Below, one piece after another: positions 6,518 to 30,820 of a stretch of 64,000 nucleotides of DNA. The stretch comes from Actinomycetota bacterium. Its GTDB lineage: Bacteria; Actinomycetota; Actinomycetes; Actinomycetales; Microbacteriaceae. The DNA lies in contig JAIUPK010000002.1 of NCBI GenBank assembly GCA_020160915.1, forward strand, positions 1 through 64,000, given 5' to 3'. The position numbers and the translations under genes were made by a program. Numbering within the stretch: position 1 is the first letter of the stretch; every line of letters begins with the position of its first letter. The notes below the pieces were generated by a model, which ran no database searches, was not told where the DNA came from, and saw only the letters and a program-made list of their open reading frames with translations.

Positions 6518-6583
6518 GGTTTCGATATGCCGCGGTTTCGATACGCCGCGGTTTCGATACGCCGCTGAAGCGGCTACTCAACC
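6518..6583. repeat. Type A palindromic repeat cluster
   Basis: Three consecutive 16-bp units of the form GGTTTCGATAYGCCGC start at 6518, 6534 and 6550; the last continues into CGGCTACTCAACC, completing one full palindrome. The right end (CTACTCAACC) contains the TGA stop of the aldehyde dehydrogenase on the minus strand. The same element recurs at eight more places in this window. Confidence 0.9.
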
Positions 6584-8032
6584 AGCGCGCCGGTGCACCG
6601 ACTTCAGGCGCAGGTACGCGTTCAGGCCCTCGGGGCCGTACTCGACGCCGAGGCCCGAGTCCTTCCAGCCGCCGAACGGGGCGGCGTGGTTGGAGCCGAA
6701 GAAGTTGACGCCGATGCTGCCGGTCTCGATCGTGCGCGCGAGAGCGGCGGCGCGTGCCTCGTCGGCGGAGAAGATCGAACCGCCGAGGCCGAACTGGCTG
6801 TCGTTGGCGATGCGCGCGGCATCAACGTCGTCGTCGAACGGGATGACCACGAGCACCGGACCGAAGATCTCCTCCTGGGCGATACGCATGCGGTTGTCGA
6901 CGTCGCTGAAGACGGTGGGCTGCACGTAGAAGCCGCGATCGAACGCCGGCCGCCCGCCACCGGTCGCGACAGTGGCGCCCTCCGCGCGGCCGAGCGCGAT
7001 GTAGCCCTCGACCCGGTCGCGCTGCCGCGCCGAGACCGTCGGCCCGTAGACCGTGTCCAGCTCGAGCGGGTCACCCTGCTTGGTCGACGCGACGACGCCC
7101 GCCACCAGCTCTACGATCTCGCCGTACCGCGAGCGCGGCGCGAGGATGCGCGTCGAGTTGTAGCAGGTCTGGCCGGTGTTGCGCAGGCAGGTGCGGTTGA
7201 GCATCGTGCCGAAGTGGTCGAGATCGACGTCATCCAACAGGATCGCCGCCGACTTGCCGCCGAGCTCGAGGGTCACCGGCCGCAGCAGCGAGCCGCACTG
7301 CTGCGCGATGATGCGCCCCGCCTCGGTCGATCCCGTGAACGCGACCTTGTCGACCAGTGGGTGCTGCACGAGCAGGCTCCCCGTCTCGCGTCCGCCCGTG
7401 ATCACATTGATGACTCCCGCGGGGATGCCCGCGGCGACCGCAGCCTCCAGGAGCACCCTGAGGTCGAGAGGCGTCTCGGCCGCGGGCTTGATCACGACGG
7501 TGCATCCCGCGAGCAGGGCCGGGGCGAGCTTGACCATCACGAGCCCGAGCGGGAAGTTCCACGGCGCGATCAGCGCGCACACCCCGACCGCCTCGCGGCT
7601 GACCTCCGTGTACGAGCCGGGCGCGTTCGGGAACGGCCGCGCGTCGACAGCATCGACGAGGTCGGCGAGAGTCGCAAAGTAGCGCAGTATGCCCGCCGAG
7701 TGGGATGCCGCAGCCGACGTCTCGGCGATCGGGCTACCGTTCTCCGCTGTGATCACCCGTGCCATCCCCTCGCCGCGCGCCGCGAGCTCGTCGGCGAAGC
7801 GCAGCACCACCTCGGCGCGCGCCGCAGCACCCATGCCACGCCAGTCCGGCAGTGCGGCGCGGGCGGCGAGCACCGCGGCATCCACATCGGCTTCATCAGC
7901 GTCAGGCACCGACGCCCAGATCTCCTCGGTGGCGGGATTCACGACGTCGATTCGGCCGGCCGCCGATGCCGCGCGCCACTGACCACCGATGAACAGGTCG
8001 GTGTGCTCGCCTCCCAGGCTCACGGAGGTCAC
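6578..8032 (-). CDS. creC: Aldehyde dehydrogenase, CreC-like
   Basis: 484 residues of an NAD(P)-dependent aldehyde dehydrogenase. The general base lies in LELGGK (Glu256) and the nucleophile in NTGQTC (Cys290); PWNFP and GFTGS-type cofactor segments are present. By position in the operon it should oxidise the aryl aldehyde formed after dephosphorylation, such as 4-hydroxybenzaldehyde, to the acid, as CreC does in the Corynebacterium 4-cresol pathway. The GTG at 8032 is one base after the preceding stop; a GTG at 8023 with GAGGTGA five bases upstream is a better-supported start. Its stop codon lies inside a repeat. Family call is firm, the substrate is inferred. Confidence 0.85.
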   Translation of the reverse strand: MTSVSLGGEHTDLFIGGQWRAASAAGRIDVVNPATEEIWASVPDADEADVDAAVLAARAALPDWRGMGAAARAEVVLRFADELAARGEGMARVITAENGSPIAETSAAASHSAGILRYFATLADLVDAVDARPFPNAPGSYTEVSREAVGVCALIAPWNFPLGLVMVKLAPALLAGCTVVIKPAAETPLDLRVLLEAAVAAGIPAGVINVITGGRETGSLLVQHPLVDKVAFTGSTEAGRIIAQQCGSLLRPVTLELGGKSAAILLDDVDLDHFGTMLNRTCLRNTGQTCYNSTRILAPRSRYGEIVELVAGVVASTKQGDPLELDTVYGPTVSARQRDRVEGYIALGRAEGATVATGGGRPAFDRGFYVQPTVFSDVDNRMRIAQEEIFGPVLVVIPFDDDVDAARIANDSQFGLGGSIFSADEARAAALARTIETGSIGVNFFGSNHAAPFGGWKDSGLGVEYGPEGLNAYLRLKSVHRRAG

Positions 8033-8033
8033 C

Positions 8034-8684
8034 TCAGATCACATCGAGCTTGAGAAGCTCAACCGACCGTGCAAGTTCTGCAGCCGCAATCTCCCGTGCC
8101 GAATCCGTGATCAGCTCACGGAAGGTGCCCGTCTTCAGCTGCTCGTGATACTGACTCGGGGTCTTTCCGAACCAGCCGGAGGCGAGTCCGATGCCGGTCG
8201 GTGTGAACCGCCACAGTCGGTCGGCGTCGCGCACCAGGGCATCCTCGATGGAGTGGTGCTGCAGCCTCGTGTCGTGACCGTCGATGATGTCGGTAACCCG
8301 TGTGATGAACGCGTCCTCGTAGCCGAGACCGGGCAGGATCTCGCGGGCGATGTTGCACCCCTCGAGCTCGTGAAGGTACCGCACATCGCTCGTGCGCCAG
8401 TCGCCACGGAAGCCCTCGGAGATGATCTTCGACTCATCCACCCGCGACCAGCCCGAATCGTGCAGGAGGATCGCAACCCGGACTACGAGGGGGTCCGCCT
8501 CCGGGTGGGTTTCCAGCAGCAGCTCGGCGAACGCGAACGACAGCGGGGTGTGGATGTCGTTGGAGCGGGCACGAAGGGCGGGTTCGGCGGCACGCCAGAC
8601 ATCGTCGAGCGAAGGCCAGTCACCGTCGGGGGAAAACCCCGAAGCGAGCGTTCGGATGGTTGGTGAAGGGGACTGCGATGGCAT
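8034..8684 (-). CDS. creD: HD-domain phosphohydrolase, CreD-like
   Basis: 216 residues with the HD metal site: His45, His75-Asp76 (ILLHDSGW), His137-Asp138 (IIDGHD) and Asp153/Asp155. In the C. glutamicum 4-cresol pathway CreD, an HD protein, removes the phosphate from the P450-oxidised aryl phosphate. Position between creC- and creE-like genes matches. A second, related HD protein is encoded at 11032-11733 in the same operon. Gene gaps are 12 bases upstream and one base downstream. Confidence 0.75.
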   Translation of the reverse strand: MPSQSPSPTIRTLASGFSPDGDWPSLDDVWRAAEPALRARSNDIHTPLSFAFAELLLETHPEADPLVVRVAILLHDSGWSRVDESKIISEGFRGDWRTSDVRYLHELEGCNIAREILPGLGYEDAFITRVTDIIDGHDTRLQHHSIEDALVRDADRLWRFTPTGIGLASGWFGKTPSQYHEQLKTGTFRELITDSAREIAAAELARSVELLKLDVI

Positions 8685-8696
8685 GGGGGACCTTTT

Positions 8697-9935
8697 CTAC
8701 GCCGGGCTGGGGACGACGAGGGACTTGAGAGGACGGCTGGTGTCGGGGGCCTGATCAGCGGGGATGGTCGCGTTCTGACCGAGCGCACGACGCACGGCCA
8801 TGTAGTCCGGTGCGTCGTTGACGGAGTCGATCGCGATGAGTTGCCCGTCGCGGTAGTAGAGCACCGAGAAGTGCTCGTCATCGGGGTTGCCGCGAAGCAC
8901 AGCCTCATCGAAGCCGGAAGAGAGACCCGCGATCTGTAGCTTCAGGTCGGCCTGGTCTGACCAGAACCACGGCACAGCTCGATAGGGCTCGAGTTTGCCG
9001 ATGAGCGTCGCGGCGGCGACCTTGGCTTGGTCGACGGCATTCTGCACGGACTCGAGACGTACACGCCCTTCACCGCCAAGGGGGTGCGGAAGCAGCACGG
9101 CATCTCCCGCAGCGACGATGCGAGGGTCGCTGGTGCGAGCGAACTCATCAACGACTATCGCGCCGCCCGAGAGCTCGAGTCCCAGTTGCTCAGCAAGACC
9201 GGAGCGAGGAACCACGCCGATACCGATCAGCACCAGGTCGGCGGGGATGAGCTCGCCGTCCTCGAGTTCGACGCCAGCGACTGCCGTCTCACCGACGAGG
9301 CGAGCGATCCGCGCGTCGAGACGCACGTCGGTTCCGCGGCGACGGTGGGCTTGCCGGTAGAACTCGCTCGTGATCGGCGAGACCGCGCGGGCGATGAGCC
9401 GGTCCGCGGCCTCAAGCACTGTCACAGCCTTCCCGGCCTTACGTGCGGCAGCAGCGACCTCGAGGCCGATGAACCCGCCTCCGATGACGACGACGTTGGC
9501 CGCGGCATCCCACCGCCCCTTGAGTTCGTCAGCGTCACTGAGATCACGGAGGTAGAGCACGCCGTCGAGATCGCCGCCCTCGATCTGCAACCGACGGGGT
9601 TCGGAACCCGGCGTGAGTGCGAGCTGGGCGAATTCGATGCGAGCGCCGGATGCGGTGGTCGCGACCCCGCGCTCGCCCGTGAACTCGACGGCGACGACGG
9701 CGTCATCGCAGCGGAGGGTGATGTGCTTGTCGTCGTAGAAGGACGGGGCACGCAGCTCGAGGGTCTCGACATCGGCTTCGCCGGAGAGGTATGCCTTGGA
9801 CAGCGGCGGTCGCTGATACGGTCCGGATGCCTCGCTCCCACTGAGCGTGATGGGTCCCGTGAACCCGAGGTCGCGAAGGCTGACCGCGAGCTGCATCCCC
9901 GCCTGGCCGGCTCCGATGATCAGGATGTCGTCCAT
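8697..9935 (-). CDS. creE: FAD-dependent ferredoxin reductase of P450 system, CreE-like
   Basis: 412 residues of the rubredoxin/ferredoxin reductase family. FAD binding is shown by ILIIGAGQAGMQLA at the N-terminus and the late AAGDAV motif; the NAD(P)H fold is VVIGGGFIGLEVAA mid-protein. It passes electrons from NAD(P)H to the adjacent ferredoxin and so to the P450. The longer open frame starts upstream, but the ATG at 9935 begins the dinucleotide fold directly and is two bases after the ferredoxin stop. Confidence 0.85.
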   Translation of the reverse strand: MDDILIIGAGQAGMQLAVSLRDLGFTGPITLSGSEASGPYQRPPLSKAYLSGEADVETLELRAPSFYDDKHITLRCDDAVVAVEFTGERGVATTASGARIEFAQLALTPGSEPRRLQIEGGDLDGVLYLRDLSDADELKGRWDAAANVVVIGGGFIGLEVAAAARKAGKAVTVLEAADRLIARAVSPITSEFYRQAHRRRGTDVRLDARIARLVGETAVAGVELEDGELIPADLVLIGIGVVPRSGLAEQLGLELSGGAIVVDEFARTSDPRIVAAGDAVLLPHPLGGEGRVRLESVQNAVDQAKVAAATLIGKLEPYRAVPWFWSDQADLKLQIAGLSSGFDEAVLRGNPDDEHFSVLYYRDGQLIAIDSVNDAPDYMAVRRALGQNATIPADQAPDTSRPLKSLVVPSPA

Positions 9936-9937
9936 GG

Positions 9938-10261
9938 TTACAACTGCTCGGGGGCGATGCGCACGAGGAGTCCGTCGAGTTCGTCGCGCATCTTGATCTG
10001 GCACGACAGGCGACTGTTGGGCAGGCGTTCGGCCGCGGCGCCGTCGAGCATGTCATCCTCGAGGTCGCCCGCGCCGCCGACCCGATCGGTGAAGGCCTCG
10101 TCGACGTAGACGTGGCAGGTCGCACACGAGCACGCCCCGCCACACTCCGCGACGATTCCCTCGACGCCGTGCTTCACGGCGACCTCCATCACGGAGTCCC
10201 CGAGACGCGCCTCGAGCGTCGTCGAGGTCCCGTCGGGGGAGATGTAGGTGATGTCGGGCAT
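9938..10261 (-). CDS. creF: [2Fe-2S] ferredoxin, CreF-like
   Basis: 107 residues, adrenodoxin/putidaredoxin type. Cluster ligands are Cys40, Cys46, Cys49 and Cys87 in the C-x5-C-x2-C plus distal C pattern, with an additional Cys44 inside the loop. It shuttles electrons from the reductase encoded two bases downstream to the P450 of the operon. AAGGAG lies eight bases before the ATG. Confidence 0.9.
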   Translation of the reverse strand: MPDITYISPDGTSTTLEARLGDSVMEVAVKHGVEGIVAECGGACSCATCHVYVDEAFTDRVGGAGDLEDDMLDGAAAERLPNSRLSCQIKMRDELDGLLVRIAPEQL

Positions 10262-10288
10262 TCTGGGCTCCTTGAGTTGGCTGGTCGG

Positions 10289-11035
10289 TCAGAGGAACTG
10301 CTTGCCACCGTCTACGACGATGGTCTGGCCGGTGAGGTATCCCGCCTGATCGGAGGCGAGGAAGAGTGCAGCGCCGACGATGTCGTCGGGCTGGCCAGCA
10401 CGTTTGATGGCTCCGCGATCGACACCGTAGGTCTCGGCATCCTCGAGCAGGCCGAGGCTGGCTTCGGTCAAGGTGAAGCCGGGGGCGATCGCGTTCACGG
10501 TGACGCCCGCCGCGCCGACCTCGCGCGCCATGACGCGCGTCATCCCAATCACGGCCGCTTTCGAGGCGACATAGTGCATCCAGAGCGGTGACCCGCTCAT
10601 CACGGTCGCCGAGGCGATGTTGATGATGCGCCCGCCGGGACTGGTCAGGTGTGGGAAGGCCGCCGCCGAGACCAGCCACGTGCCTTTGGCGTTGACGCCC
10701 ATCACCCGATCCCACTCGGTCGGATCGATGTCGGTGAACGGCGTGCGGGTCAGCGTCGCGTAGATCGCAGCGTTGTTGACAACCACATCGAGCCGACCGA
10801 AGTGTGCGATGAGCGAGTCGACCATCGCTCGCACCGAGTCGGCGGATGTCACATCCACCGTCACTGCGAGCGCCTGAGCACCGCGGCCCAGGAGTACCTC
10901 GACCGTGCGCTCGGCGCCGGGACCATCGATGTCGGCGACGACCACACGATCCCCCTGGGCCGCGAAGCCCTCGGCGAAAGCCCGCCCCAGGCCCCCGCCG
11001 GCGCCGGTGATGAGAACCACGCGTGACTCGGTCAT
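10289..11035 (-). CDS. creG: SDR family alcohol dehydrogenase, CreG-like
   Basis: 248 residues of a classical short-chain dehydrogenase: TGAGGGLG at residues 10-17 binds NAD(P), NNAA at 87-90 is structural, and Tyr155-x3-Lys159 (YVASK) is catalytic. Its place in the operon suggests oxidation of the benzylic alcohol released by the HD phosphohydrolase to the aldehyde, the CreG step. The ATG overlaps the stop of the upstream HD gene by four bases and is preceded by GGGAGC. Confidence 0.75.
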   Translation of the reverse strand: MTESRVVLITGAGGGLGRAFAEGFAAQGDRVVVADIDGPGAERTVEVLLGRGAQALAVTVDVTSADSVRAMVDSLIAHFGRLDVVVNNAAIYATLTRTPFTDIDPTEWDRVMGVNAKGTWLVSAAAFPHLTSPGGRIINIASATVMSGSPLWMHYVASKAAVIGMTRVMAREVGAAGVTVNAIAPGFTLTEASLGLLEDAETYGVDRGAIKRAGQPDDIVGAALFLASDQAGYLTGQTIVVDGGKQFL

Positions 11036-11733
11036 GACTGCTCCCGCTGATGTACTAGTTCCAGCTGTGGACTGTTCTGCATCGAGCCGACCGCCACGAG
11101 CGCCCGGGACATCGCCCGGGCGGGCTCGGTGAAGAGCTCCGAGTAGGCGCGGTAGGCGCAGAGCCTCAGTGATTCGTCATCGTCGATGCCGAACCAATCG
11201 CAGACGACGGCGCGGCCGTGGGGAGTGACTCTCCACAGCTTGTCGGCATCCTTGACGATCGAGTCCTCCAGGCTCATCGAGTCGGGTCGGCTGTCATGGC
11301 CATCGATGATCTCGGTGATTCGGTCGATGTCGCTGGCGGGCAGCCCGACGGTGGTGAGGATCTCACGCGCGATACGAGCGCCTTCCTTCTCGTGCTTCAG
11401 CACAAGCTCGGGGACACCTCCGCCGGGTGCGATCGCCTCCAACGCCTCGCGCTCGTCGACGGTCGACCATCCGGTGTCGTGAAGCAGGATGGCCGGCAAC
11501 ACGATCCCCTCGTTCGCCTCTGGCAGTTGCGACAGCAACGCCGCCGCTAGCCCATAGGAGAACAGCGAGTGTGCGTCATTGTCACGCACCGTCAGATAGG
11601 GGGCCGCGAGAGCCCAGATCGCCTCATCCCGCTCGCCGAGCGCGACCAGGCCGGGCACGGCATCCCACGCGGGGATCCGCGAGGAGACATCGCGACCGAG
11701 GTGGTTCACTCGGGGGCGGGATGAGGTGGTCAT
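11032..11733 (-). CDS. Second HD-domain phosphohydrolase of the cre-like operon
   Basis: 233 residues from the ATG at 11733; the frame continues upstream but that part overlaps the creH-like gene and has no HD-family character. Metal residues are kept: His55, His85-Asp86 (ILLHDTGW), His146-Asp147 (IIDGHD), Asp162/Asp164. It aligns by eye with the CreD-like protein at 8034-8684 over most of its length, so the two look like paralogues. It could have a different alkylphenyl phosphate preference or act on the unoxidised phosphate; this is inference. It overlaps the SDR start. Confidence 0.75.
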   Translation of the reverse strand: MTTSSRPRVNHLGRDVSSRIPAWDAVPGLVALGERDEAIWALAAPYLTVRDNDAHSLFSYGLAAALLSQLPEANEGIVLPAILLHDTGWSTVDEREALEAIAPGGGVPELVLKHEKEGARIAREILTTVGLPASDIDRITEIIDGHDSRPDSMSLEDSIVKDADKLWRVTPHGRAVVCDWFGIDDDESLRLCAYRAYSELFTEPARAMSRALVAVGSMQNSPQLELVHQREQS

Positions 11734-11749
11734 GGTGATCTGCCGCTCT

Positions 11750-13585
11750 CTACTCGAGGATGGTGACGATGCCCTGCGAGCCGTCCACCCGCAGTCGCAT
11801 CCCCGTCTTGATCTTCGTCGATGCACTGCCGGTGCCGGTGACGGCGGGCAGCCCGTACTCGCGGCAGACGATGGCCGCGTGGCTCATCATGCCGCCGATG
11901 TCGGTGACCGTCGCCGTGATCTTGCCGAAGACGGGACCCCAACTCGGTGCCGTGACGGGAGCGACGAGGATCTCGCCCTGCTGCAGCTCGCCGAGCTGTT
12001 CCGGCCCGGTGATGACGCGTGCGAAACCTTCGACCACTCCCGGGGACGCAGCCATGCCCTTGAGCCCGGGGTTCTCCTGGTCGTCGCCGGCGAGCCACTG
12101 CTGCACCTGCTCCGTCGTGATGCCCCACAGCATGATCGTGAACGGCTCGTTGATCGTCTCGGGCGGCGTGTTGAAGGCCGGCTCGGGGCGGGCCGTCGCA
12201 AGGGCCGCAACGATACCGCGACGACGCTCGATCTCTGCTGGCCAATAGGTCGGACCGATCGGGTCGGCACCCACGCCCCAGCCGGTGGCGAGGTCGAAGA
12301 TCACCGGGCGTACCTCGTCGCGCGTGAGGTACAGCATGTCGTCGGTGTTCTCCCAGAAGCCGTAGCTGTGGAACAGCGCCGAGAGCTGGCGTACTTTGCG
12401 CCAGAACACGCCCATCGTCCAGTGCTCGATATAGAAGTTGTGGTCCTCCACGTAGGGGTAAACCGTGCGAGCGAGCCCCAGCTTGCCCTGGAAGGTGGCC
12501 AGCGCGTCGCCGGACAGGAAGTCCGAGTATTCACCGACGATGCGGTCGCGTTCGGCGATGAGGTCGTCGGTCGGGCGGCGCAGGACGTCGCCGCGGGCAG
12601 CGCGCGCTACGTAGTCCTTGATGTAACCGATCGGCAGATCGAGGTTGTCACGCCAGTAGACGTCGGACCCATAGAAGCCGTTGCCCGAGGTGTAGTTGAA
12701 CCACGGCTCCTGCGCCTTCTCCCAGGCGGCGAGCCACTCGGCGCCACCATCGGAGGCGGCAATGGCGGCGAGCCTCTGCTCAGCGCCCTCGTGCACCGCA
12801 AAGATCTCAGCGAGGTTCAGCTTCACCGCCAATTCGGCGAGGCCCTTGAGCTCGTCGTCGGGGCGGAACAGTACCGAGTCGACACCCTGCACCATGCGGG
12901 CAATCGCGAGGTCAGGGATGCCCGGGAACGACTCCTTGCAGAAGCCGAAGAAGTCGAGGTAGGCAACGTAGCCGAGGTTGAGGAACTCGAAGTGGTACTC
13001 CCAGTTCTGGTAGGCGAGCTGGATGAGGCGGTCGTAGTCGGCCATCATCTTCGCGCTCGGGTCGATGCCGGCGCCGCTCGTGATCACCTCGAGGTCTACC
13101 ATCTCGGGCAGGGCCTCGAAGTTGATGGCATCCATCTCCTCGATCGTGCCGAGCACCTTCTTCTTCCAGTTCTCCAGAAGCGAATCCCAGTTCGCGAAGT
13201 AGTAACCTGCGCGCTCCATGAAGTGGGGCACGCGGTCGCCGATGAGCTCGGGCGCAACGGCGACCGGGCTCATGTAGCAGAAGCCGTTGTGGATGCGGAA
13301 CTCGATGCCGTTGGCCGGCGGAATGATGTAGTGCCGCGTGTTGAACGCACCAAGGCAGCGCACGGCGAACTCGACGCCGACTGTCTCGAACGGCTTGAAC
13401 ACGTTGGGCCAGTGCTGGCTGTCGCAGAACCAGAACTTGGCGTTCTCCTTGTCACGCAGGTTCTCCTGGAAGACGAGGTTGTAGGGGTAGAGCTCCTTCC
13501 AGCCCTCTGCGCCGGGAGGTGCCTCCAGGTCGTAGGGGGAGTCGAAGCTCTTGCGAGCGACGGTCTGCGTCATTGCGTTCGTCAT
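11750..13585 (-). CDS. creH: PEP-synthase-like phosphohistidine subunit, CreH-like
   Basis: 611 residues from the ATG at 13585, which has AGAAAGG nine bases upstream. The C-terminal 120 or so residues form the swivelling phosphohistidine domain, with GGMMSHAAIVCREYG placing the phospho-carrier histidine at residue 569; the long N-terminal part should be the phenol-binding domain. There is no ATP-grasp domain, which is supplied by the next gene. This split matches phenylphosphate synthase and CreH/CreI of C. glutamicum, which phosphorylate 4-cresol with ATP. The substrate in this organism is inferred from that similarity. Confidence 0.8.
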   Translation of the reverse strand: MTNAMTQTVARKSFDSPYDLEAPPGAEGWKELYPYNLVFQENLRDKENAKFWFCDSQHWPNVFKPFETVGVEFAVRCLGAFNTRHYIIPPANGIEFRIHNGFCYMSPVAVAPELIGDRVPHFMERAGYYFANWDSLLENWKKKVLGTIEEMDAINFEALPEMVDLEVITSGAGIDPSAKMMADYDRLIQLAYQNWEYHFEFLNLGYVAYLDFFGFCKESFPGIPDLAIARMVQGVDSVLFRPDDELKGLAELAVKLNLAEIFAVHEGAEQRLAAIAASDGGAEWLAAWEKAQEPWFNYTSGNGFYGSDVYWRDNLDLPIGYIKDYVARAARGDVLRRPTDDLIAERDRIVGEYSDFLSGDALATFQGKLGLARTVYPYVEDHNFYIEHWTMGVFWRKVRQLSALFHSYGFWENTDDMLYLTRDEVRPVIFDLATGWGVGADPIGPTYWPAEIERRRGIVAALATARPEPAFNTPPETINEPFTIMLWGITTEQVQQWLAGDDQENPGLKGMAASPGVVEGFARVITGPEQLGELQQGEILVAPVTAPSWGPVFGKITATVTDIGGMMSHAAIVCREYGLPAVTGTGSASTKIKTGMRLRVDGSQGIVTILE

Positions 13586-13679
13586 TGCGTTGGGCCTTTC
13601 TCGGTTCGTCGGGACTGGTGGTGATGACAGCACGGTTCACGGATCGCTCGTGGCGACCCGAACGGCGGTCGGGGTGTGG

Positions 13680-14750
13680 CTAGGTGCGGGTGCCCATCTG
13701 AGCGAGGAGTGATCGGGTGATCGCCTCGATTCCGGATCCGCCGGAGGTGTAGTTCACCGGAGTCTCCTTCTGCGACCAGACCGTCTCCGGTCGCGATTGC
13801 AGGAGCAGCACGTTCTGACCGGGCGGGAGATCGGCGTCGATCGCCCACTCGACGTCCTGCACACTGCCGTAGTGCTTCTCTGCACTCTTCGCCAGCCGCG
13901 CCACGGCGATGAGTTCCTCATCACTGAGGCTCGGCGAGTTGCGCCGCTCCGCCTCGACTTCGCGTCGGGCGACTGTGCCGTGACCTGTCGGCACGAGCTC
14001 CTCATGCTTGTCGCTGATGATGCGATCGATCACGTGCAGCAGAACCTTGTCGATGAGGAAGTTGTCGGGCGTCACCTCGCCTGAGACCACCAATTCGCCA
14101 AGGCCCCAACTGGAGTCGATGACGATCTTGGAGCGATCGCCATTCTTCGGGTCGATCGTCATGGCTACCCCCGATGTGCGGGAGTTGACCATCTTTTGGA
14201 CAGCCACAGCCATCGACAATCCCTCGTCAGAGATACCGTTGGCTGCGCGGTAGGTGATGGCTCGAGCCGTGTACAGGCTCGCCCAGCACTCGCGCACCCG
14301 CTGGAGAACGTTCTGCTGTCCAGTGATCCACAGATAGGTGTCTTGTTGACCTGCGAAGCTCGCATCGGGCAGGTCCTCGGCGGTCGCGCTCGACCGCACC
14401 GCGACGGGAACCTCACCGCCGCACACCGTCATGAGCGCGTCGTAGGCGGCGATAGTGTCGTCACGCACATCATCTGGAACCGCCTGCGTGAGGATGAGCT
14501 CGCGGATGTGAGCGGCGCGCGTGTCGACCTCAGCGACATCGTCGTGGTCGAGTCCGTCGAGCACCCGCGCGATGTGTTCGCGAAGGGTGGTCTGGTTCAT
14601 CACGGCGTCGAACGCGTCGGTCGTGATCGCGAACCCGGGCGGTACGGGGGCACCGGCTGACGTCATGATCGCGAGGCTTGTGCACTTGCCGCCGAGGCGC
14701 TCATGCTCGGGAGTCTCGGAGCTGTCGAAGGGGAAGGTGTAGATACTCAT
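13680..14750 (-). CDS. creI: PEP/pyruvate-binding-type ATP-grasp subunit, CreI-like
   Basis: 356 residues equal to the N-terminal nucleotide-binding domain of PEP synthase/PPDK alone. LGGKCTSLAIM near the start, VPPGFAITTDAF, and VRSSATAEDLPDASFAGQQ are family landmarks; no swivel histidine domain follows. It would transfer a phosphoryl group from ATP to the histidine of the CreH-like subunit. Its ATG overlaps the P450 stop by four bases; 94 bases without an open gene separate its end from creH. Confidence 0.82.
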   Translation of the reverse strand: MSIYTFPFDSSETPEHERLGGKCTSLAIMTSAGAPVPPGFAITTDAFDAVMNQTTLREHIARVLDGLDHDDVAEVDTRAAHIRELILTQAVPDDVRDDTIAAYDALMTVCGGEVPVAVRSSATAEDLPDASFAGQQDTYLWITGQQNVLQRVRECWASLYTARAITYRAANGISDEGLSMAVAVQKMVNSRTSGVAMTIDPKNGDRSKIVIDSSWGLGELVVSGEVTPDNFLIDKVLLHVIDRIISDKHEELVPTGHGTVARREVEAERRNSPSLSDEELIAVARLAKSAEKHYGSVQDVEWAIDADLPPGQNVLLLQSRPETVWSQKETPVNYTSGGSGIEAITRSLLAQMGTRT

Positions 14751-15994
14751 GAGCGACCTCCTTCACCCCAGGTGACGGCCACAGCGGTCGGCGCGCGGAA
14801 CGACAGGTTGTCGCCAAAGGCGATCTCCTGACCTGGTACGAGAGCGAGATCAGGGATCTTCGCGGTGATCTCCTCGAGAACGACACGCACCTGCAGCTTG
14901 GCCAGCAGGTTGCCCAAGCAGTAGTGGATCCCGAAGCCGAAGGAGAGGTGGCTGCGGGCATTCTTGCGGGCGATATCGAACAGGTCCGGCTCGGCGAACA
15001 CCGACTCGTCGCGGTTCGCCGACCCCATGACCAGGAGCACATTCGACCCCGCCGGAATCGGCACTCCGCCAATCTCTGTATCGATGACGGCCTTGCGCCG
15101 CCAGGCAACAATGCTCGGGCTGAAGCGAAGCACCTCATCGATTGCGGCCGGGATGACCGAATTGTCCTCGCCAAGCTGGCGGTACTGCTCCGGATGAGCG
15201 AGGAGCACTCGGAGGGCGTTCGAGATCAGGGTCGTCGTTGTCTCGTGACCAGCGAAGAGCAGGCTGTAGAGGAAGGACGCGATCTCGTGATCGTTGATCT
15301 CGTTGCCCTCGGCCTGAAGGCGCACCATGTCTCCGACGAGATCGTCACCGGGGTTCGCCTTCGCCTCGGAGACGAGTTGCTGACAGTAGTTCCAGTACTC
15401 GACGAGGTTGATGGCGTGGGGGATCTGGTCCTCGTCGCTGAGGTCTCCCCACGTCATTGCCGCGCGGCTGCCCGCCCACTCCTTGACTTGGGGGATCATG
15501 TCGATCGGAACGCCGAGCAGGGTGAGGATCGTGATGGTGGGAACATCCCACGCGAGAGACGCGACGATGTCCGCGGGCGCGCCGTCCGCGAGCATCCGGT
15601 CGATCAGGCGATCCACGTTCTCGCGGATCAGAGGCTCGAGTACCTTGTAGCGACGCGGCGTGAATGCCTTGGTCGCGACATCCCGGATGCGCGTGTGCTC
15701 GGGAGGCACGCGAGCGGACAGTCCGGAGTATGCCGTGAAGCCGCCCTCGGTCATGATGCGCTTGGCCGGTTCGCCAGCTGGTCGTACGGGAGCCTGGGCG
15801 TTCTCGGAGGAGAACTGCTCCCAGTTGGCGAAAGTCGCCTTGATGTCGTCGTAACGGGTCACAACGTAGTAGCCGATGCGTTCGTCGAACATCACCGGCT
15901 CCTCGCGACGAAGTTCGGCATAGATCGGGAATGGGTCCGCCATGGCGAACGGCTCGAACCCGTGGTGCTCATGCACCGCTACGTCAACGCTCAT
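14747..15994 (-). CDS. creJ: Cytochrome P450, CreJ-like
   Basis: 415 residues from the ATG at 15994, chosen because AAGGAGG lies six bases before it. The I-helix is AGHETT at residues 248-253, the ExxR helix precedes, and the heme signature FGFGIHYCLG places the thiolate at Cys359. The ferredoxin and its reductase are encoded downstream, so it is a class I system. In the C. glutamicum pathway CreJ oxidises the methyl group of the phosphorylated cresol. It is the first gene after the IclR regulator and the palindrome at 16062. Confidence 0.88.
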   Translation of the reverse strand: MSVDVAVHEHHGFEPFAMADPFPIYAELRREEPVMFDERIGYYVVTRYDDIKATFANWEQFSSENAQAPVRPAGEPAKRIMTEGGFTAYSGLSARVPPEHTRIRDVATKAFTPRRYKVLEPLIRENVDRLIDRMLADGAPADIVASLAWDVPTITILTLLGVPIDMIPQVKEWAGSRAAMTWGDLSDEDQIPHAINLVEYWNYCQQLVSEAKANPGDDLVGDMVRLQAEGNEINDHEIASFLYSLLFAGHETTTTLISNALRVLLAHPEQYRQLGEDNSVIPAAIDEVLRFSPSIVAWRRKAVIDTEIGGVPIPAGSNVLLVMGSANRDESVFAEPDLFDIARKNARSHLSFGFGIHYCLGNLLAKLQVRVVLEEITAKIPDLALVPGQEIAFGDNLSFRAPTAVAVTWGEGGRS

Positions 15995-16061
15995 CACGTT
16001 CCTCCTTGAACCGAAGTGATGCTTCATGGTGCGCTTCCTGTGGGCGTGCACCTAGCACCAC

Positions 16062-16078
16062 TTCTCACTCAGTGAGAA
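16062..16078. promoter_or_regulatory. Candidate IclR operator upstream of the cre-like operon
   Basis: A perfect palindrome TTCTCACT-C-AGTGAGAA, eight-base arms about one central base, lies 68 bases before the P450 start and overlaps the stop codon of the IclR gene. IclR-family operators are often palindromes of about this size. No second copy was seen near the regulator's own start. Its role is inferred from position and symmetry. Confidence 0.55.
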
Positions 16079-16881
16079 TCGCTACGCCGAGCGGGATGAC
16101 GCGGCCACGCCGACGGCACCGCAAGCGCCCGCTCCACCCGCTCGGCGGTCGACTGCAGTAGCGGGAGGAACCGCCGCGCCTCCCCGGACCGCGCGGCCTC
16201 GATCACTACTCCGATCGCGGCAACCACCTCCTCAGCGACGACGATCGGTACCGCGATGGAGCACGAGCCCACCCGCATCTGGTTGATAGTGATCGAGTAG
16301 TGGTCATGGGCGGCGGCGGCGACCGCCGCACGAAGCCCATCGGGATCCACGAGGGTGCGCTCAGTTGGCGCCTCGAGCTCGCGCTCGACGTACGCCTCAA
16401 CGAACCACTTCGGTTCGGCTGCGAGCAGCACGCGACCAACCGCGGTCGTGTGCAGTGGCAGCCGCCCGCCGACTCGCGAGACCATCGGCACCTTGCGGGA
16501 CCCGTAGATCTTGTCGATGTAGAGCACCTGCGTGCCCTCGCGAACGGCGAGATGCACGTTCTCGTGGGTCAGGTCGAAGAGATCCTGGAGGAACGGATGC
16601 GCCCGGTCCCGCAGCCGGCGCCCCGCAAGCTGGCCGAGCTCCCAGATGCGCATCCCGACCTGGTAGTGACCGTCGGCGGTGCGGTCGAGCCCGCCCCACG
16701 CCTCGAGCTCGTGCACGAGACGATACGTCGTAGAAAGTGGGAGGCGAGCCCGCTGCGCGATCCGGGCGACCGTGAGCGCACCTGTCGTCGACTCGAACGC
16801 GGCCAGCACAGCCAGAGACCGCGACGTCACGCTGGTGCTGCGCGCAGTGACGGCGCCCGCTCCGGCATCCATGTCGGCCAT
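16069..16881 (-). CDS. IclR family transcriptional regulator
   Basis: 270 residues from the ATG at 16881, four bases after GAGGAGG. Residues 20-80 form the winged helix (SLAVLAAFES, LTVARIAQRARLPLSTTYRLV) and the remainder the IclR effector domain (HLAVREGTQVLYIDKIYG, TAVGRVLLA, SCSIAVPI). IclR proteins commonly respond to aromatic acids or phenols. Its position directly upstream of and codirectional with the cre-like operon makes it the likely controller. Further upstream open frame is not protein-like. Confidence 0.88.
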   Translation of the reverse strand: MADMDAGAGAVTARSTSVTSRSLAVLAAFESTTGALTVARIAQRARLPLSTTYRLVHELEAWGGLDRTADGHYQVGMRIWELGQLAGRRLRDRAHPFLQDLFDLTHENVHLAVREGTQVLYIDKIYGSRKVPMVSRVGGRLPLHTTAVGRVLLAAEPKWFVEAYVERELEAPTERTLVDPDGLRAAVAAAAHDHYSITINQMRVGSCSIAVPIVVAEEVVAAIGVVIEAARSGEARRFLPLLQSTAERVERALAVPSAWPRHPARRSDSH

Positions 16882-27718: not shown

Positions 27719-27751
27719 GGTTGCGCTACGCCGCTGCGCGGCTACTCAACC
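27719..27751. repeat. Degenerate type A palindromic repeat
   Basis: A 33-bp copy whose left end is degenerate (GGTTGCGCTACGCC) and whose right end is the canonical CGGCTACTCAACC. The right end contains the TGA stop codon of the RND transporter on the minus strand. Confidence 0.8.
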
Positions 27752-30700
27752 GGCCTTCGCCGCCCGCTTCGCGTCGCGCCGCTCCTTGCGACCCTCCACC
27801 AGGTAGTACAGCGTCGGCAGCACGATCAGCGTGAGGATCGTGGATGACACGAGCCCACCGATCACGATGATGGCCAGCGGCTGGGAGATGAAACCACCAT
27901 TGCCGGTTATGCCGATTCCGAGTGGGAGCAGCGCGAAGATCGTCGCCGCCGCGGTCATGAGAATCGGGCGGAGGCGTCGCGCCGCACCGTGCTCGATCGC
28001 GTCGCGCGCCGACATCCCGCGTTCTCGGTACTGGTTGATGAGGTCGACCAGCACGATCGCGTTGGTCACGACGATACCGATCAGCATGAGCACACCGATC
28101 AGCGAGGCGGTGCCGAGCGGGATGCCCGAGATCACCTGCAGCGCGATCGCACCGGTCGCCGCGAACGGCACAGACACGAGCAGCAGCAGCGGCTGGCGGA
28201 GGCTCTTGAAGGTGGCCACCATCACGACGTAGACGATGAGGATCGCCACGAGCAGCGCGAGCCCGAGCTGGCTGAACGCGTCGGCCTGCTGTGCGGTGAC
28301 GCCGCCGATGGTCGCGGATGCCCCGGCCGGCAGGTTCACGTCGGCAAGCGCCGCGGCTACCGCAGCCGAGGCCGTGCCGACGTCGTCGCTGTTCGGAGTG
28401 ACCGCCACGGTCGCGCTGCGCACACCCTTGATGGTCGTGATGCTCGACGGCCCGTTGGTCTGCTCGACCGTGGCCAGGTCGCTGAGCGGCACGATGCCCT
28501 TGGCGGTCGGGATGTCGAAGTTCTTGAGCTCCTCGATCGTCGTCGGCGCCGAGTCGTTGAGGATGTAGATCGACAGCGTCTTCTCATCGATCACCACCGA
28601 GCCGACAGCGCTCGGGTTCATCGCCGCGGTCACGATTCCGCCCACCTGGATCTCGCTGAGACCCGCCTCGGCGGCCTTGTCGCGATCCACGGTGATGCCG
28701 ATGAACGGCTGCTCGTTCGACAGGTTGCTGGTCGCCTCGGCAGTCACCGAGAGGTCCTTCACTGCGGCGAGTACGGCATCCGAGGCATCCCGGAGCTCCT
28801 GCTCGCTCGTCGCCGTGATGTTGACATTGATGGTGGATGACCCGAACCCACCCTGCGATGCCGCCAGCGTGATCTCGCCCGCGTTGTCGATCTTCGCAAC
28901 TTCATCGCGAATGGTCGCCTGCAGCTTGACCTGGTCGACGGCCGGATCGGTCGTCAGCGAGAACGTCGTCGCCCCCGAACCGGTGAAGGCGGCGCGCAGG
29001 GAGCTGCCGCTCGATCCGATCGACAGCTGCACGGTCTCGACCCCCGCGGTGTCGATGAGCACGCTCTCGACCTTCTTGGCGGCGGTGTCGCGCGCCTCGA
29101 GGCTGGTGCCGAGCGGCATGGTCTGGCGCACGGTGACGGTGTTCTGGCCGGAGTCGCCGATGAAGTTGGTCTTCATGAACGGAACGAGTGCGACGGTTCC
29201 GCCGAGCAGCAGCACCGCTACGAGGATCGTGGCGATCGGGCGCTTGAGCGTCCAGCGGATGATCGGCAGGTAGGCCTTCTGCAGACGCGTGGGCGTGTCG
29301 AGCTCGTCGGCGGCGCTGTCGACAGCCACCCCCTCGTGCTTGTGGGCTTTGTTGCCGAGGAACCAGTACGCGAGCACCGGAACGATCGTCAGCGAGACGA
29401 AGAGGGATGCCGCGAGCGCAATCGTCACCGTGAGGGCGAAGGGCCTGAACAGCTCGCCCGTGATGTCGCCGACCAGCGCGAGGGGCAGGAACACGGCCAC
29501 CGTCGTGATCGTCGACGCGGTCACAGCGCCAGCGACCTCGCGCACGGCGCTGAGGATCGCAGTGCGTTTCTCCTCGCCGAGGCCGATGTGACGTTTGATG
29601 TTCTCGATGACGACGATCGAGTCATCCACCACACGGCCGATGGCGATCGTCAAAGCACCGAGCGTGATGATGTTGAGGGTGTAGCCGGCTGCGAGCATCC
29701 CGATGAAGGTGATGAGCACCGAGACGGGGATCGAGATCGCCGCGACGATCGTCGAACGGAACGAGAACAGGAACAGGAAGATCACGACCACCGCGAAGGC
29801 GAGACCGAGCAGACCCTCGGTCGCGAGCGAGTTGATCGACTCCTCGATGAAGGGTGCCTGATCGAAGACCGGGGTGAGCTTCGTGTTCGAGCCGATAGCG
29901 GCCTCGAGGTCGGGGATGGCGGCCATGACGGCGCGCGACACGGCGACGGTGTTGCCCGCCGGGGTCTTGGTGATGGCGATGGTGACCGACGGCTCGCCGT
30001 TGACGCGGGAGATGCCGGTGACGGGGTCGTCGACGACCTCGACGGTCGCGACATCCGCGAGGGTGGTCAGGTCGAGCGAGTTGCCGCCCAACAGCGGCAG
30101 GGCGGCCACCTCGTCGGCGGTCGTGACCCGGGCGCCGGCCTGCACGGTGAGCGTGAGGTCGTTCTCCGTGATCTGACCGGCGGGCAGCAGCACGCCGTTG
30201 TCGTCGAGGGCGTCCCGAATCGACTGGTTCGACAGCCCGCGGGCGAACAACTCGTCAGGGTCGGGGGTGATGACGACGCGCTGCGTGGTCGAGCCCAGCA
30301 GGCTCGCGTCGCTGACGTCGTTGATCTTCTTGAGCTCGACGATCGTCGAGGCGTTGAGCTTGGCGGTGAGATCGAGGGGGTCCAGGTCGCTGGTGACGGC
30401 GAGCTGGATGACCGGCAGGTCGGAGAAGTTGAAGGTGAGCACCTGGGTGTCGGCGCCATCCGGAAGGTTCTGCAGCCGGTTGATCGCCAGCTGCACCTTC
30501 TGCTCGGCGGTGGCGATGTTGGTGCCGTAGTCGAACGAGGCCGTGACCTGCGAGACGTTCGCGCTCGACGTCGCGGTGGTCGAGTCGAGCCCGGCGACAG
30601 TCTGAATCGCCGCCTCGATGGGCGTCGAGACATCCTTGTCGACAACCGCAGGGCTGGCGCCCGGGTAGCTCGTGATGATGAAGATCTGCGGCAGCGAGAG

Positions 30701-30820
30701 GCTGGGGATCAGCTCCTGCTTGAGCGAGGTGAGCGCGACACCGCCAAAGAGACCGACAACGATCGTGACGAGAGCGATGAGTGCGCGGTTGCGCAGGCTG
30801 AAGACTGAGAGAAGATGCAC
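27746..30820 (-). CDS. RND family efflux transporter permease
   Basis: 1024 residues with the twofold AcrB/SwrC-like organisation: an N-terminal helix (FSLRNRALIALVTIVVGLFG), a large extracytoplasmic domain, a membrane block with the proton-relay region GRVVDDSIVVIENIKRHIG near residue 400, and the same plan repeated. It should pump lipophilic compounds by proton antiport. No membrane fusion partner or outer-membrane channel is encoded nearby, as expected for a monoderm, where SwrC of Bacillus works alone. The stop lies in a repeat. Confidence 0.9.
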   Translation of the reverse strand: MHLLSVFSLRNRALIALVTIVVGLFGGVALTSLKQELIPSLSLPQIFIITSYPGASPAVVDKDVSTPIEAAIQTVAGLDSTTATSSANVSQVTASFDYGTNIATAEQKVQLAINRLQNLPDGADTQVLTFNFSDLPVIQLAVTSDLDPLDLTAKLNASTIVELKKINDVSDASLLGSTTQRVVITPDPDELFARGLSNQSIRDALDDNGVLLPAGQITENDLTLTVQAGARVTTADEVAALPLLGGNSLDLTTLADVATVEVVDDPVTGISRVNGEPSVTIAITKTPAGNTVAVSRAVMAAIPDLEAAIGSNTKLTPVFDQAPFIEESINSLATEGLLGLAFAVVVIFLFLFSFRSTIVAAISIPVSVLITFIGMLAAGYTLNIITLGALTIAIGRVVDDSIVVIENIKRHIGLGEEKRTAILSAVREVAGAVTASTITTVAVFLPLALVGDITGELFRPFALTVTIALAASLFVSLTIVPVLAYWFLGNKAHKHEGVAVDSAADELDTPTRLQKAYLPIIRWTLKRPIATILVAVLLLGGTVALVPFMKTNFIGDSGQNTVTVRQTMPLGTSLEARDTAAKKVESVLIDTAGVETVQLSIGSSGSSLRAAFTGSGATTFSLTTDPAVDQVKLQATIRDEVAKIDNAGEITLAASQGGFGSSTINVNITATSEQELRDASDAVLAAVKDLSVTAEATSNLSNEQPFIGITVDRDKAAEAGLSEIQVGGIVTAAMNPSAVGSVVIDEKTLSIYILNDSAPTTIEELKNFDIPTAKGIVPLSDLATVEQTNGPSSITTIKGVRSATVAVTPNSDDVGTASAAVAAALADVNLPAGASATIGGVTAQQADAFSQLGLALLVAILIVYVVMVATFKSLRQPLLLLVSVPFAATGAIALQVISGIPLGTASLIGVLMLIGIVVTNAIVLVDLINQYRERGMSARDAIEHGAARRLRPILMTAAATIFALLPLGIGITGNGGFISQPLAIIVIGGLVSSTILTLIVLPTLYYLVEGRKERRDAKRAAKAG

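What the first reader, a model, noticed from the sequence alone, without database searches (positions are those of the whole stretch)
6578..16881. Complete cre-like operon for phosphorylation-initiated alkylphenol breakdown
Ten codirectional genes follow the order creC, D, E, F, G, extra HD, H, I, J, regulator, matching the C. glutamicum 4-cresol operon. A split dikinase (ATP-grasp subunit plus phosphohistidine subunit, carrier His569 by my count) would phosphorylate a phenol. The class I P450 would oxidise its side chain, an HD enzyme would remove phosphate, and SDR and ALDH would finish. No ring-cleavage genes for the product lie in the window. A Microbacteriaceae-type version with a duplicated HD gene is, to my knowledge, not characterised.
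Basis: partly seen in the sequence, partly recalled or inferred. Interest (0 to 1): 0.78.

Follow-up and report, generated by a model that had tools for sequence, protein, structure and literature searches.

The report
Cresol-type operon with second phosphatase
An actinobacterium carries, as one probably transplanted block, the genes for breaking down cresol-like phenols by first tagging them with phosphate, plus a second likely phosphate-removing enzyme that is not part of the well-studied model operon but that many other bacteria keep beside theirs.

Summary
The ten genes are there, intact and in the stated order, and belong to the 4-cresol (cre) pathway: CreH is 66% and the P450 67% identical to those of the genome taken as C. 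glutamicum, and the CreH tree places the window inside the cre clade, away from hpe- and pps-type kinases. The product's route lies elsewhere in the genome: a 4-hydroxybenzoate hydroxylase and an apparently full protocatechuate 4,5-cleavage cluster. It is an old second family (HD2), beside cre in 50 of 80 relatives from three phyla, at most 169 bp from another cre gene, with the HD motif residues kept and one fixed difference (Lys for Arg). It is not in the described C. glutamicum operon. I propose a second aryl-phosphate phosphohydrolase (inferred). The cassette fills a site that is short in 17 of 20 congeners, so it was probably acquired. A 17-bp palindrome before the P450 gene, conserved in 46 of 51 loci, is the likely operator. 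Substrate and activities are untested.

The parts
16069..16881 (-). IclR-family regulator (CreR position), PcaR/PobR-like
   Evidence: PF01614 122 bits, PF09339 45 bits; TIGR02431 132 bits, under its cut-off of 285
16062..16078 (-). candidate operator, perfect palindrome TTCTCACT-G-AGTGAGAA overlapping the regulator's stop codon, 67 bp before the P450 start
   Evidence: only place in the genome at up to 2 mismatches, itself without mismatch (the backwards control pattern also had one match per strand) and in the window (0.04 expected); a site between regulator and P450 gene in 46 of 51 cre loci at up to 3 mismatches against 0.8% of random sequences
14747..15994 (-). class I cytochrome P450 (CreJ type)
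   Evidence: PDB 5xjn/5gwe 608/606 bits, next P450 264 bits; 266/399 identical to the cre P450 of G124, taken as C. glutamicum
13680..14750 (-). ATP-grasp subunit of the phenol dikinase (CreI type)
   Evidence: PF01326 368 bits; 57% to G124 CreI; best PDB match 9goj, an entry code that occurs once in PMC12167813 (passage not shown), so presumably HpeI
11750..13585 (-). substrate/phosphohistidine subunit of the phenol dikinase (CreH type), His569
   Evidence: PF00391 81 bits; NF006150 1080 bits over cut-off 650; 66.4% to G124 CreH; tree
11032..11733 (-). HD2, second HD-domain hydrolase, not in the described C. glutamicum cre operon
   Evidence: PF01966 38 bits; own side of the HD tree; HD motif residues kept, Lys161; AlphaFold pLDDT 95
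10289..11035 (-). short-chain alcohol dehydrogenase (CreG type)
   Evidence: PF13561 208 bits; 65% to G124
9938..10261 (-). [2Fe-2S] ferredoxin (CreF type)
   Evidence: PF00111 39 bits; 55% to G124
8697..9935 (-). ferredoxin reductase (CreE type)
   Evidence: PF07992 209 bits and PF14759 104 bits; 49% to G124
8034..8684 (-). HD1, phosphohydrolase of the CreD type
   Evidence: PF01966 25.7 bits over cut-off 22; 52% to G124 CreD against 34% for HD2; HD1 side of the tree
6578..8032 (-). aldehyde dehydrogenase (CreC type)
   Evidence: PF00171 510 bits; 56% to G124

Best explanation
This is a horizontally acquired cre cassette for aerobic breakdown of 4-alkylphenols, most likely 4-cresol. CreI presents ATP, His569 of CreH is phosphorylated and passes phosphate to the phenol oxygen. 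The P450, fed by the ferredoxin reductase and ferredoxin, oxidises the methyl group of the aryl phosphate to alcohol and further. CreD (HD1) and the second HD hydrolase (HD2) remove the phosphate, probably from different phosphorylated intermediates. The SDR and aldehyde dehydrogenase finish the oxidation to 4-hydroxybenzoate, which goes through a 4-hydroxybenzoate hydroxylase and the protocatechuate 4,5-cleavage cluster on another contig to central metabolism. An IclR-type regulator controls the unit at a palindrome before the P450 gene. Shown here: gene content, order, homology, clade membership, lower-pathway genes, variable insertion site, conserved palindrome. Inferred from the characterised homologues: the reactions. 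Inferred from genomics alone: HD2's role, the operator, the acquisition and the substrate.
For: Families and identities to the genome taken as C. glutamicum. CreH tree of 93 rows: window with 87 other cre rows, split from 5 rows without cre context (SH-aLRT 100), among them a phenylphosphate-carboxylase locus (L125) and a biotin-carboxylase/HAD locus (L126). P450 stretches that I placed as substrate-recognition sites, window against the G124 P450: 33/41, 28/40, 26/29, 16/21, 12/17, whole chain 266/399. Lower pathway: PRK08243 459 bits over 351, PRK13366 461 over 317, 4-oxalomesaconate tautomerase 529 over 440, LigK 311 over 304.5, LigA domain 120 bits. Context: pobA-like genes in the flanks of 14 of 80 cre loci, a pcaG-like cluster in 10 of 80, lig-type genes beside cre in L023, L062, L091 and congener L102; toluene-4-monooxygenase genes next to a plasmid cre operon. 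HD2: 50 of 80 loci, at most 169 bp from another cre gene; 23 columns kept at 95% or more in both HD families (metal-binding roles recalled). A P450 cluster with HD2 and no HD1 in 24 kb exists (L164/L166). Operator. Insertion.
Against: No activity, expression or growth was tested. HD2 is missing near cre in 22 of the 80 loci that have at least 17 kb fetched (8 more are shorter), and in 8 of 11 genomes searched whole no HD2 was found at E 1e-5, one of the 8 (G124) being partly masked, so it is dispensable. The operator forms were defined partly on loci that were then counted, and the backwards control pattern had as many genome matches at up to 2 mismatches. The hydroxylase is under the strict TIGR02360 cut-off. 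Lower-pathway genes are not linked to cre in this genome. The model enzymes act on several p- and m-alkylphenols (PMC9549646 passages), so 4-cresol is not singled out. Three of the five P450 stretches are not much more conserved than the whole chain. The window's subclade is separate from the characterised one.
Confidence: 0.82

Rival explanations
1. Same chemistry, other natural substrate: the enzymes act mainly on another alkylphenol (for example 4-ethylphenol or a meta-alkylphenol), and 4-cresol is a side substrate.
For: The C. glutamicum system oxidises a range of p- and m-alkylphenols (PMC9549646, passages); the window's subclade is separate in the CreH tree.
Against: Two recognition stretches of the P450 are nearly those of CreJ (33/41 and 26/29); flanking pobA-like, pca and lig-type genes in part of the relatives point to 4-hydroxybenzoate as product; toluene-4-monooxygenase genes beside one cre operon point to 4-cresol (product recalled).
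Confidence: 0.25
2. HD2 is not a second catabolic phosphatase but an editing or inducer-clearing hydrolase: it undoes phosphorylation of downstream phenols (4-hydroxybenzaldehyde, 4-hydroxybenzoate) or removes the inducer.
For: The related kinase HpeHI also transforms 4-hydroxybenzaldehyde and phenol (PMC12167813 abstract); in many actinobacterial loci HD2 sits next to the regulator; its linked presence needs at least 9 changes on the CreH tree.
Against: In Pseudomonadota HD2 sits behind the aldehyde dehydrogenase; one P450 cluster has HD2 as its only HD gene in the 24 kb examined.
Confidence: 0.3
3. The kinase belongs to a carboxylating pathway (hpe/acv or pps/ppc) and the P450 genes are unrelated neighbours.
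For: CreH is 46.2% and 44.9% identical to CreH-like proteins of such clusters (L125, L126).
Against: No carboxylase among the ten genes; tree split; the P450-CreI-CreH neighbourhood recurs in relatives of three phyla.
Confidence: 0.03
4. The kinase inactivates a phenolic toxin or antibiotic, as rifampin phosphotransferase does, rather than serving catabolism.
For: Shared ATP-grasp and swivel domains with 5fbs/5hv1-type chains (named as rifampin phosphotransferase in PMC12167813).
Against: Two-chain form, oxidation genes in the same operon, lower-pathway genes in the genome.
Confidence: 0.03

Closest known systems
C. glutamicum cre operon (creC-J, cg0637-cg0645), 4-cresol pathway
   Same: Gene set and order, class I P450 with ferredoxin and reductase, split dikinase, CreD-type HD hydrolase, SDR and ALDH (functions from PMC7764795 passages)
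   Different: Extra HD2 gene between creH and creG; 17-bp operator form where the Corynebacterium kin L043, L113, L114 have the 15-bp form; protocatechuate 4,5-cleavage genes and no intradiol dioxygenase match in the genome, while the C. glutamicum control has one
HpeHI / AcvAB two-component kinases (hydroxyphenylethanone pathways)
   Same: Same two-chain dikinase family; phosphohistidine mechanism (PMC12167813 sections 8 and 10)
   Different: Followed by a biotin carboxylase and a NagD-like phosphatase (PMC9618137 passages), not by P450 and HD hydrolases; a cluster of this kind (L126) is separate in the tree
PpsAB phenylphosphate synthase (anaerobic phenol pathway)
   Same: Kinase family (PMC12167813)
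   Different: Beside phenylphosphate carboxylase genes (L125); anaerobic
Rifampin phosphotransferase
   Same: ATP-grasp and swivel domains
   Different: One chain; antibiotic resistance

Membership tests
cre (phosphorylation-initiated 4-cresol) operon | gene set and order C-D-E-F-G-H-I-J plus regulator | tested here: met
   one extra gene, HD2. The regulator of G124 itself lies in a masked stretch; kin L113 and L114 have an IclR there
cre (phosphorylation-initiated 4-cresol) operon | CreH and P450 in the cre clade | tested here: met
   CreH tree, 88 cre rows against 5 outgroup rows, SH-aLRT 100; P450 608 bits to the CreJ structure, next 264. No P450 tree with outgroups was built
cre (phosphorylation-initiated 4-cresol) operon | phosphohistidine motif in CreH | tested here: met
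   GGMMSH motif, His569; Ser before His as reported for CreH and PpsA (PMC12167813)
cre (phosphorylation-initiated 4-cresol) operon | CreD-type HD phosphohydrolase | tested here: met
   HD1, 52% and HD1 side of the tree
cre (phosphorylation-initiated 4-cresol) operon | ATP-dependent phosphorylation of 4-cresol and P450 oxidation of the phosphate | not testable with these tools
   needs purified enzymes
cre (phosphorylation-initiated 4-cresol) operon | route from 4-hydroxybenzoate to central metabolism in the genome | tested here: met
   PobA-type and 4,5-cleavage genes on contig C6; LigC, LigI and LigJ roles rest on family and position
hpe/acv pathway | biotin-dependent carboxylase and HAD phosphatase beside the kinase | tested here: not met
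   none among the ten genes
pps/ppc pathway | phenylphosphate carboxylase beside the kinase | tested here: not met
   none among the ten genes

The most novel reading that the evidence does not exclude
The cre pathway as described from C. glutamicum is a reduced form. Over much of its range it has two dedicated HD phosphohydrolases, split early, with a fixed Arg/Lys difference next to a presumed metal-binding Asp, each for its own set of phosphorylated intermediates (or HD2 as an editing enzyme that undoes wrong phosphorylation by the kinase). The same kinase lineage has a sister group wired to a Rieske oxygenase, so aerobic phosphate tagging of phenols is a wider strategy than described.
Probability: 0.37. 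Interest if true: 0.62.

Novelty: new variant of a known kind. Interest (0 to 1): 0.5.

Why it matters
Why bacteria spend ATP to tag phenols with phosphate before oxidising them is called unclear in the papers read (PMC12167813 section 10; PMC9618137 section 11). A second, old, cre-linked HD hydrolase is a testable piece of that question: two enzymes suggest that dephosphorylation is a control or editing point. The conserved palindrome gives a ready reporter and a way to find cre genes, and HD2 could be tried in alkylphenol oxidation systems that use CreD alone (PMC9549646 passages).

Tried and rejected
Rejected: HD2 as a recent local duplication (HD1 and HD2 each one side of a branch, SH-aLRT 100, 87 and 53 rows; quick tree, no bootstrap, long-branch warnings printed, rows labelled by their better score to the window's HD1 or HD2). 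Rejected: hpe- or pps-type pathway. Rejected: missing ring cleavage; genes for it are on another contig.

Led nowhere: PDB sequence searches with HD2 (10 weak matches) and HD1 (2 weak matches); the fold search with the HD2 model found only weak matches to HD proteins such as PgpH and YpgQ (best E 0.0049, none at 0.001; TMq 0.38-0.56 in the first 14 rows), so no substrate hint; the HD1 model was not searched; the promoter/terminator scan was at or below chance level; window frames of the first 40 kb outside the ten-gene block have no match in the eight nearest loci, whose flanks end about 5 kb beyond the block. The C. glutamicum papers by Du et al. (2016, 2017) are not held; their content beyond cited passages is recalled. 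I saw no paper on a second HD gene in the listings of five searches, which cover only the held open-licence library; PMC13101518 (passages) treats p-cresol in Rhodococcus opacus and has no hit for creH or phosphorylat.

Rows dropped: of 86 rows examined for the operator, 51 had regulator and P450 on one strand within 800 bp and were counted; 8 rows cut by contig ends and the duplicate L104 of L038 were left out of the HD2 change count; 20 of the 26 other congeners have both neighbour genes at E 1e-100.
Full report
What is there. His569 of the 611-residue CreH is the carrier histidine by position and motif. A search of the whole genome finds one CreH match only. The host is a 2.93-Mb genome in 8 contigs, 99.75% complete. 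A congener (G013) shares contig length and CreH sequence with a record titled Salinibacterium sp. (L104 and L038), so the genus is probably near Salinibacterium; this is an inference.

Is it cre? Against its cre region the window's proteins are 66.4% (CreH), 57% (CreI), 65% (SDR), 56% (ALDH), 55% (ferredoxin), 52% (HD1), 49% (reductase) identical and 266/399 for the P450. HD2 has no counterpart in the readable part; 5000 bases of the fetched stretch, behind the P450 and covering the regulator, are masked, so that side of G124 cannot be judged. The close kin L113 (P450 96% to CreJ) and L114 have no HD2 in 18 kb. The order and roles of creC to creJ, with one phosphohydrolase, are given in a C. 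glutamicum transcriptome table (PMC7764795, passages). In these 80: CreH 80, HD1 80, ALDH 79, SDR 79, CreI 78, P450 77, ferredoxin 72, reductase 71, HD2 50, IclR 50, some loci being cut by contig ends. The CreH tree of 93 rows puts the window in a 9-row subclade (support 100) of Microbacteriaceae such as Aurantimicrobium, Rhodoluna and Alpinimonas, beside the other actinobacterial cre rows.

The second HD gene. HD1 and HD2 share 73 of 176 aligned residues. In a tree of 140 HD proteins each forms one side of a branch (SH-aLRT 100), and each holds Actinomycetota, Pseudomonadota and Bacteroidota. So the pair is older than the spread of the operon among these phyla, or spread with it. Twenty-three columns are kept at 95% or more in both, the H, HD and D positions among them (motif recalled); one column is fixed differently, Arg152 in HD1 and Lys161 in HD2 (also invariant in the smaller alignments). 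HD2 lies at most 169 bp from another cre gene in all 50 loci that have it, but in different places: between CreH and SDR (the window's subclade), before or divergent from the regulator, between regulator and P450 (L032), behind the aldehyde dehydrogenase. On the CreH tree its linked presence needs at least 9 changes (53 yes, 26 no, 8 not counted). Of 11 other genomes searched whole because the fetched flank showed no HD2, 3 carry HD2 elsewhere and 8 gave only the CreD type, among them C. gallinarum (G060) and the partly masked G124. The HD2 model is all-helical and confident (pLDDT 95) but has only weak PDB matches. I conclude that HD2 is a real, accessory part of the pathway and most likely a phosphohydrolase; its substrate is unknown.

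Where the product goes. The genome has no PF00775 intradiol dioxygenase match at E 0.001 (the same search rings in the C. glutamicum control). On contig C6 it has a 4-hydroxybenzoate 3-monooxygenase (PRK08243, 459 bits over 351; under the stricter TIGR02360 cut-off) and a cluster with LigB-type (461 over 317) and LigA-type (120 bits) dioxygenase subunits, a GFO/IDH/MocA dehydrogenase, a protein like 4-sulfomuconolactone hydrolase (227 bits, under its cut-off of 500), an Amidohydro_2 protein, 4-oxalomesaconate tautomerase (529 over 440), LigK aldolase (311 over 304.5) and a PcaR/PobR-like regulator (164 bits, under its cut-off). The LigC, LigI and LigJ roles of the less specific ones are inferred. 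In the congener G011 such genes lie beside cre (L102); in the congener G013 the flank holds pobA-like and pcaG genes (L104/L038). Over the 80 loci, pobA-like genes are in the flanks of 14 and the pcaG-like cluster in 10 (one representative identified). No random-flank control was run. A plasmid of Rhodococcus oxybenzonivorans has toluene-4-monooxygenase genes directly before its cre operon.

How it got here. In the genus, 3 of 27 genomes hold a full-length CreH, of two different subclades. The genes on either side, an acyl-CoA oxidase and an MFS transporter, are neighbours in all 20 other congeners in which both were found; their gap is 46-999 bp in 17 and 2.6, 3.6 and 7.6 kb in three; here it is 10,579 bp and is filled by the cassette. 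In the six congeners aligned, the sequence match ends in the last 50 bp or so of the two neighbour genes. The other two cre-positive congeners carry cre elsewhere: G011 about 0.4 Mb away, G013 on another contig. This argues for acquisition into a variable site; no mobile-element gene was identified.

Control. A 17-bp perfect palindrome lies between regulator and P450 gene. It is the only place in the genome at up to 2 mismatches, though a control pattern read backwards also gave one match per strand. Between regulator and P450 gene, 46 of 51 loci have a site within 3 mismatches of either of two forms (17 bp in the window's subclade, mostly 15 bp elsewhere), against 0.8% of random sequences with the same base-step make-up. 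The forms were taken from about ten of these rows, so the count is partly circular; the remaining rows are the test. This makes it likely that the nine genes behind the regulator have their own control site.

Prevalence. In 394 genomes of the class, 3 (own included) have a cre-type CreH at 65% or more; 14 lie at 51-56% and 4 at 45-46%. The fourteen form a sister group described under Noticed in passing.

Verdict. A genuine cre operon, new as a member with an uncharacterised but widespread second HD hydrolase. Shown: anatomy, relationship, lower-pathway genes, variable site, conserved palindrome. Inferred: every reaction. Interest 0.5.

Noticed in passing
L147-L150, L153-L162 (unnamed class-mates; e.g. 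L153 whole cluster): A sister clade of CreH (14 genomes of 394, 51-56% identity; cre side 100/100, this side 98/98) sits in another conserved cluster: CreHI with a Rieske oxygenase (13 of 14; L150 ends at a contig end), a histidine-phosphatase-type protein (13 of 14), two catechol-2,3-dioxygenase-like proteins (12 of 14) and often meta-cleavage genes. It looks like an undescribed aerobic route: phenol to aryl phosphate, Rieske hydroxylation, catechol, meta cleavage. Reactions are inferred; no literature search was made for it.
   Followed up: partly
L164 / L166 (G336): A cre-like P450 cluster with HD2 but, in 24 kb, no HD1 and no cre-type kinase, with a kinase of the other (45% identity) type divergent beside it.
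   Followed up: partly
L123 (R. oxybenzonivorans plasmid pRB98): Toluene-4-monooxygenase genes directly upstream of a cre operon: a possible toluene to 4-cresol to 4-hydroxybenzoate unit.
   Followed up: no
18 loci such as L044:5689-7356: 17 Pseudomonadota and one Bacteroidota locus share a large protein beside cre; the one tested has a BTAD regulatory domain. It may stand in for the IclR regulator.
   Followed up: no
window 6518-6560 and 9 other places: GTATCGAAACC repeats, 12 at up to 1 mismatch against 0.32 expected; three copies 16 bp apart just behind the operon, REP-like.
   Followed up: no
window 27749-30820 (-): Full-length AcrB/D/F-type RND transporter (PF00873, 722 bits) in an actinobacterium.
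   Followed up: no
L140 (G014) and L142-L144: The acyl-CoA oxidase/MFS gap is a variable site: it holds other DNA in congeners, up to 7.6 kb; in G014 an acyltransferase-like reading frame by eye.
   Followed up: partly
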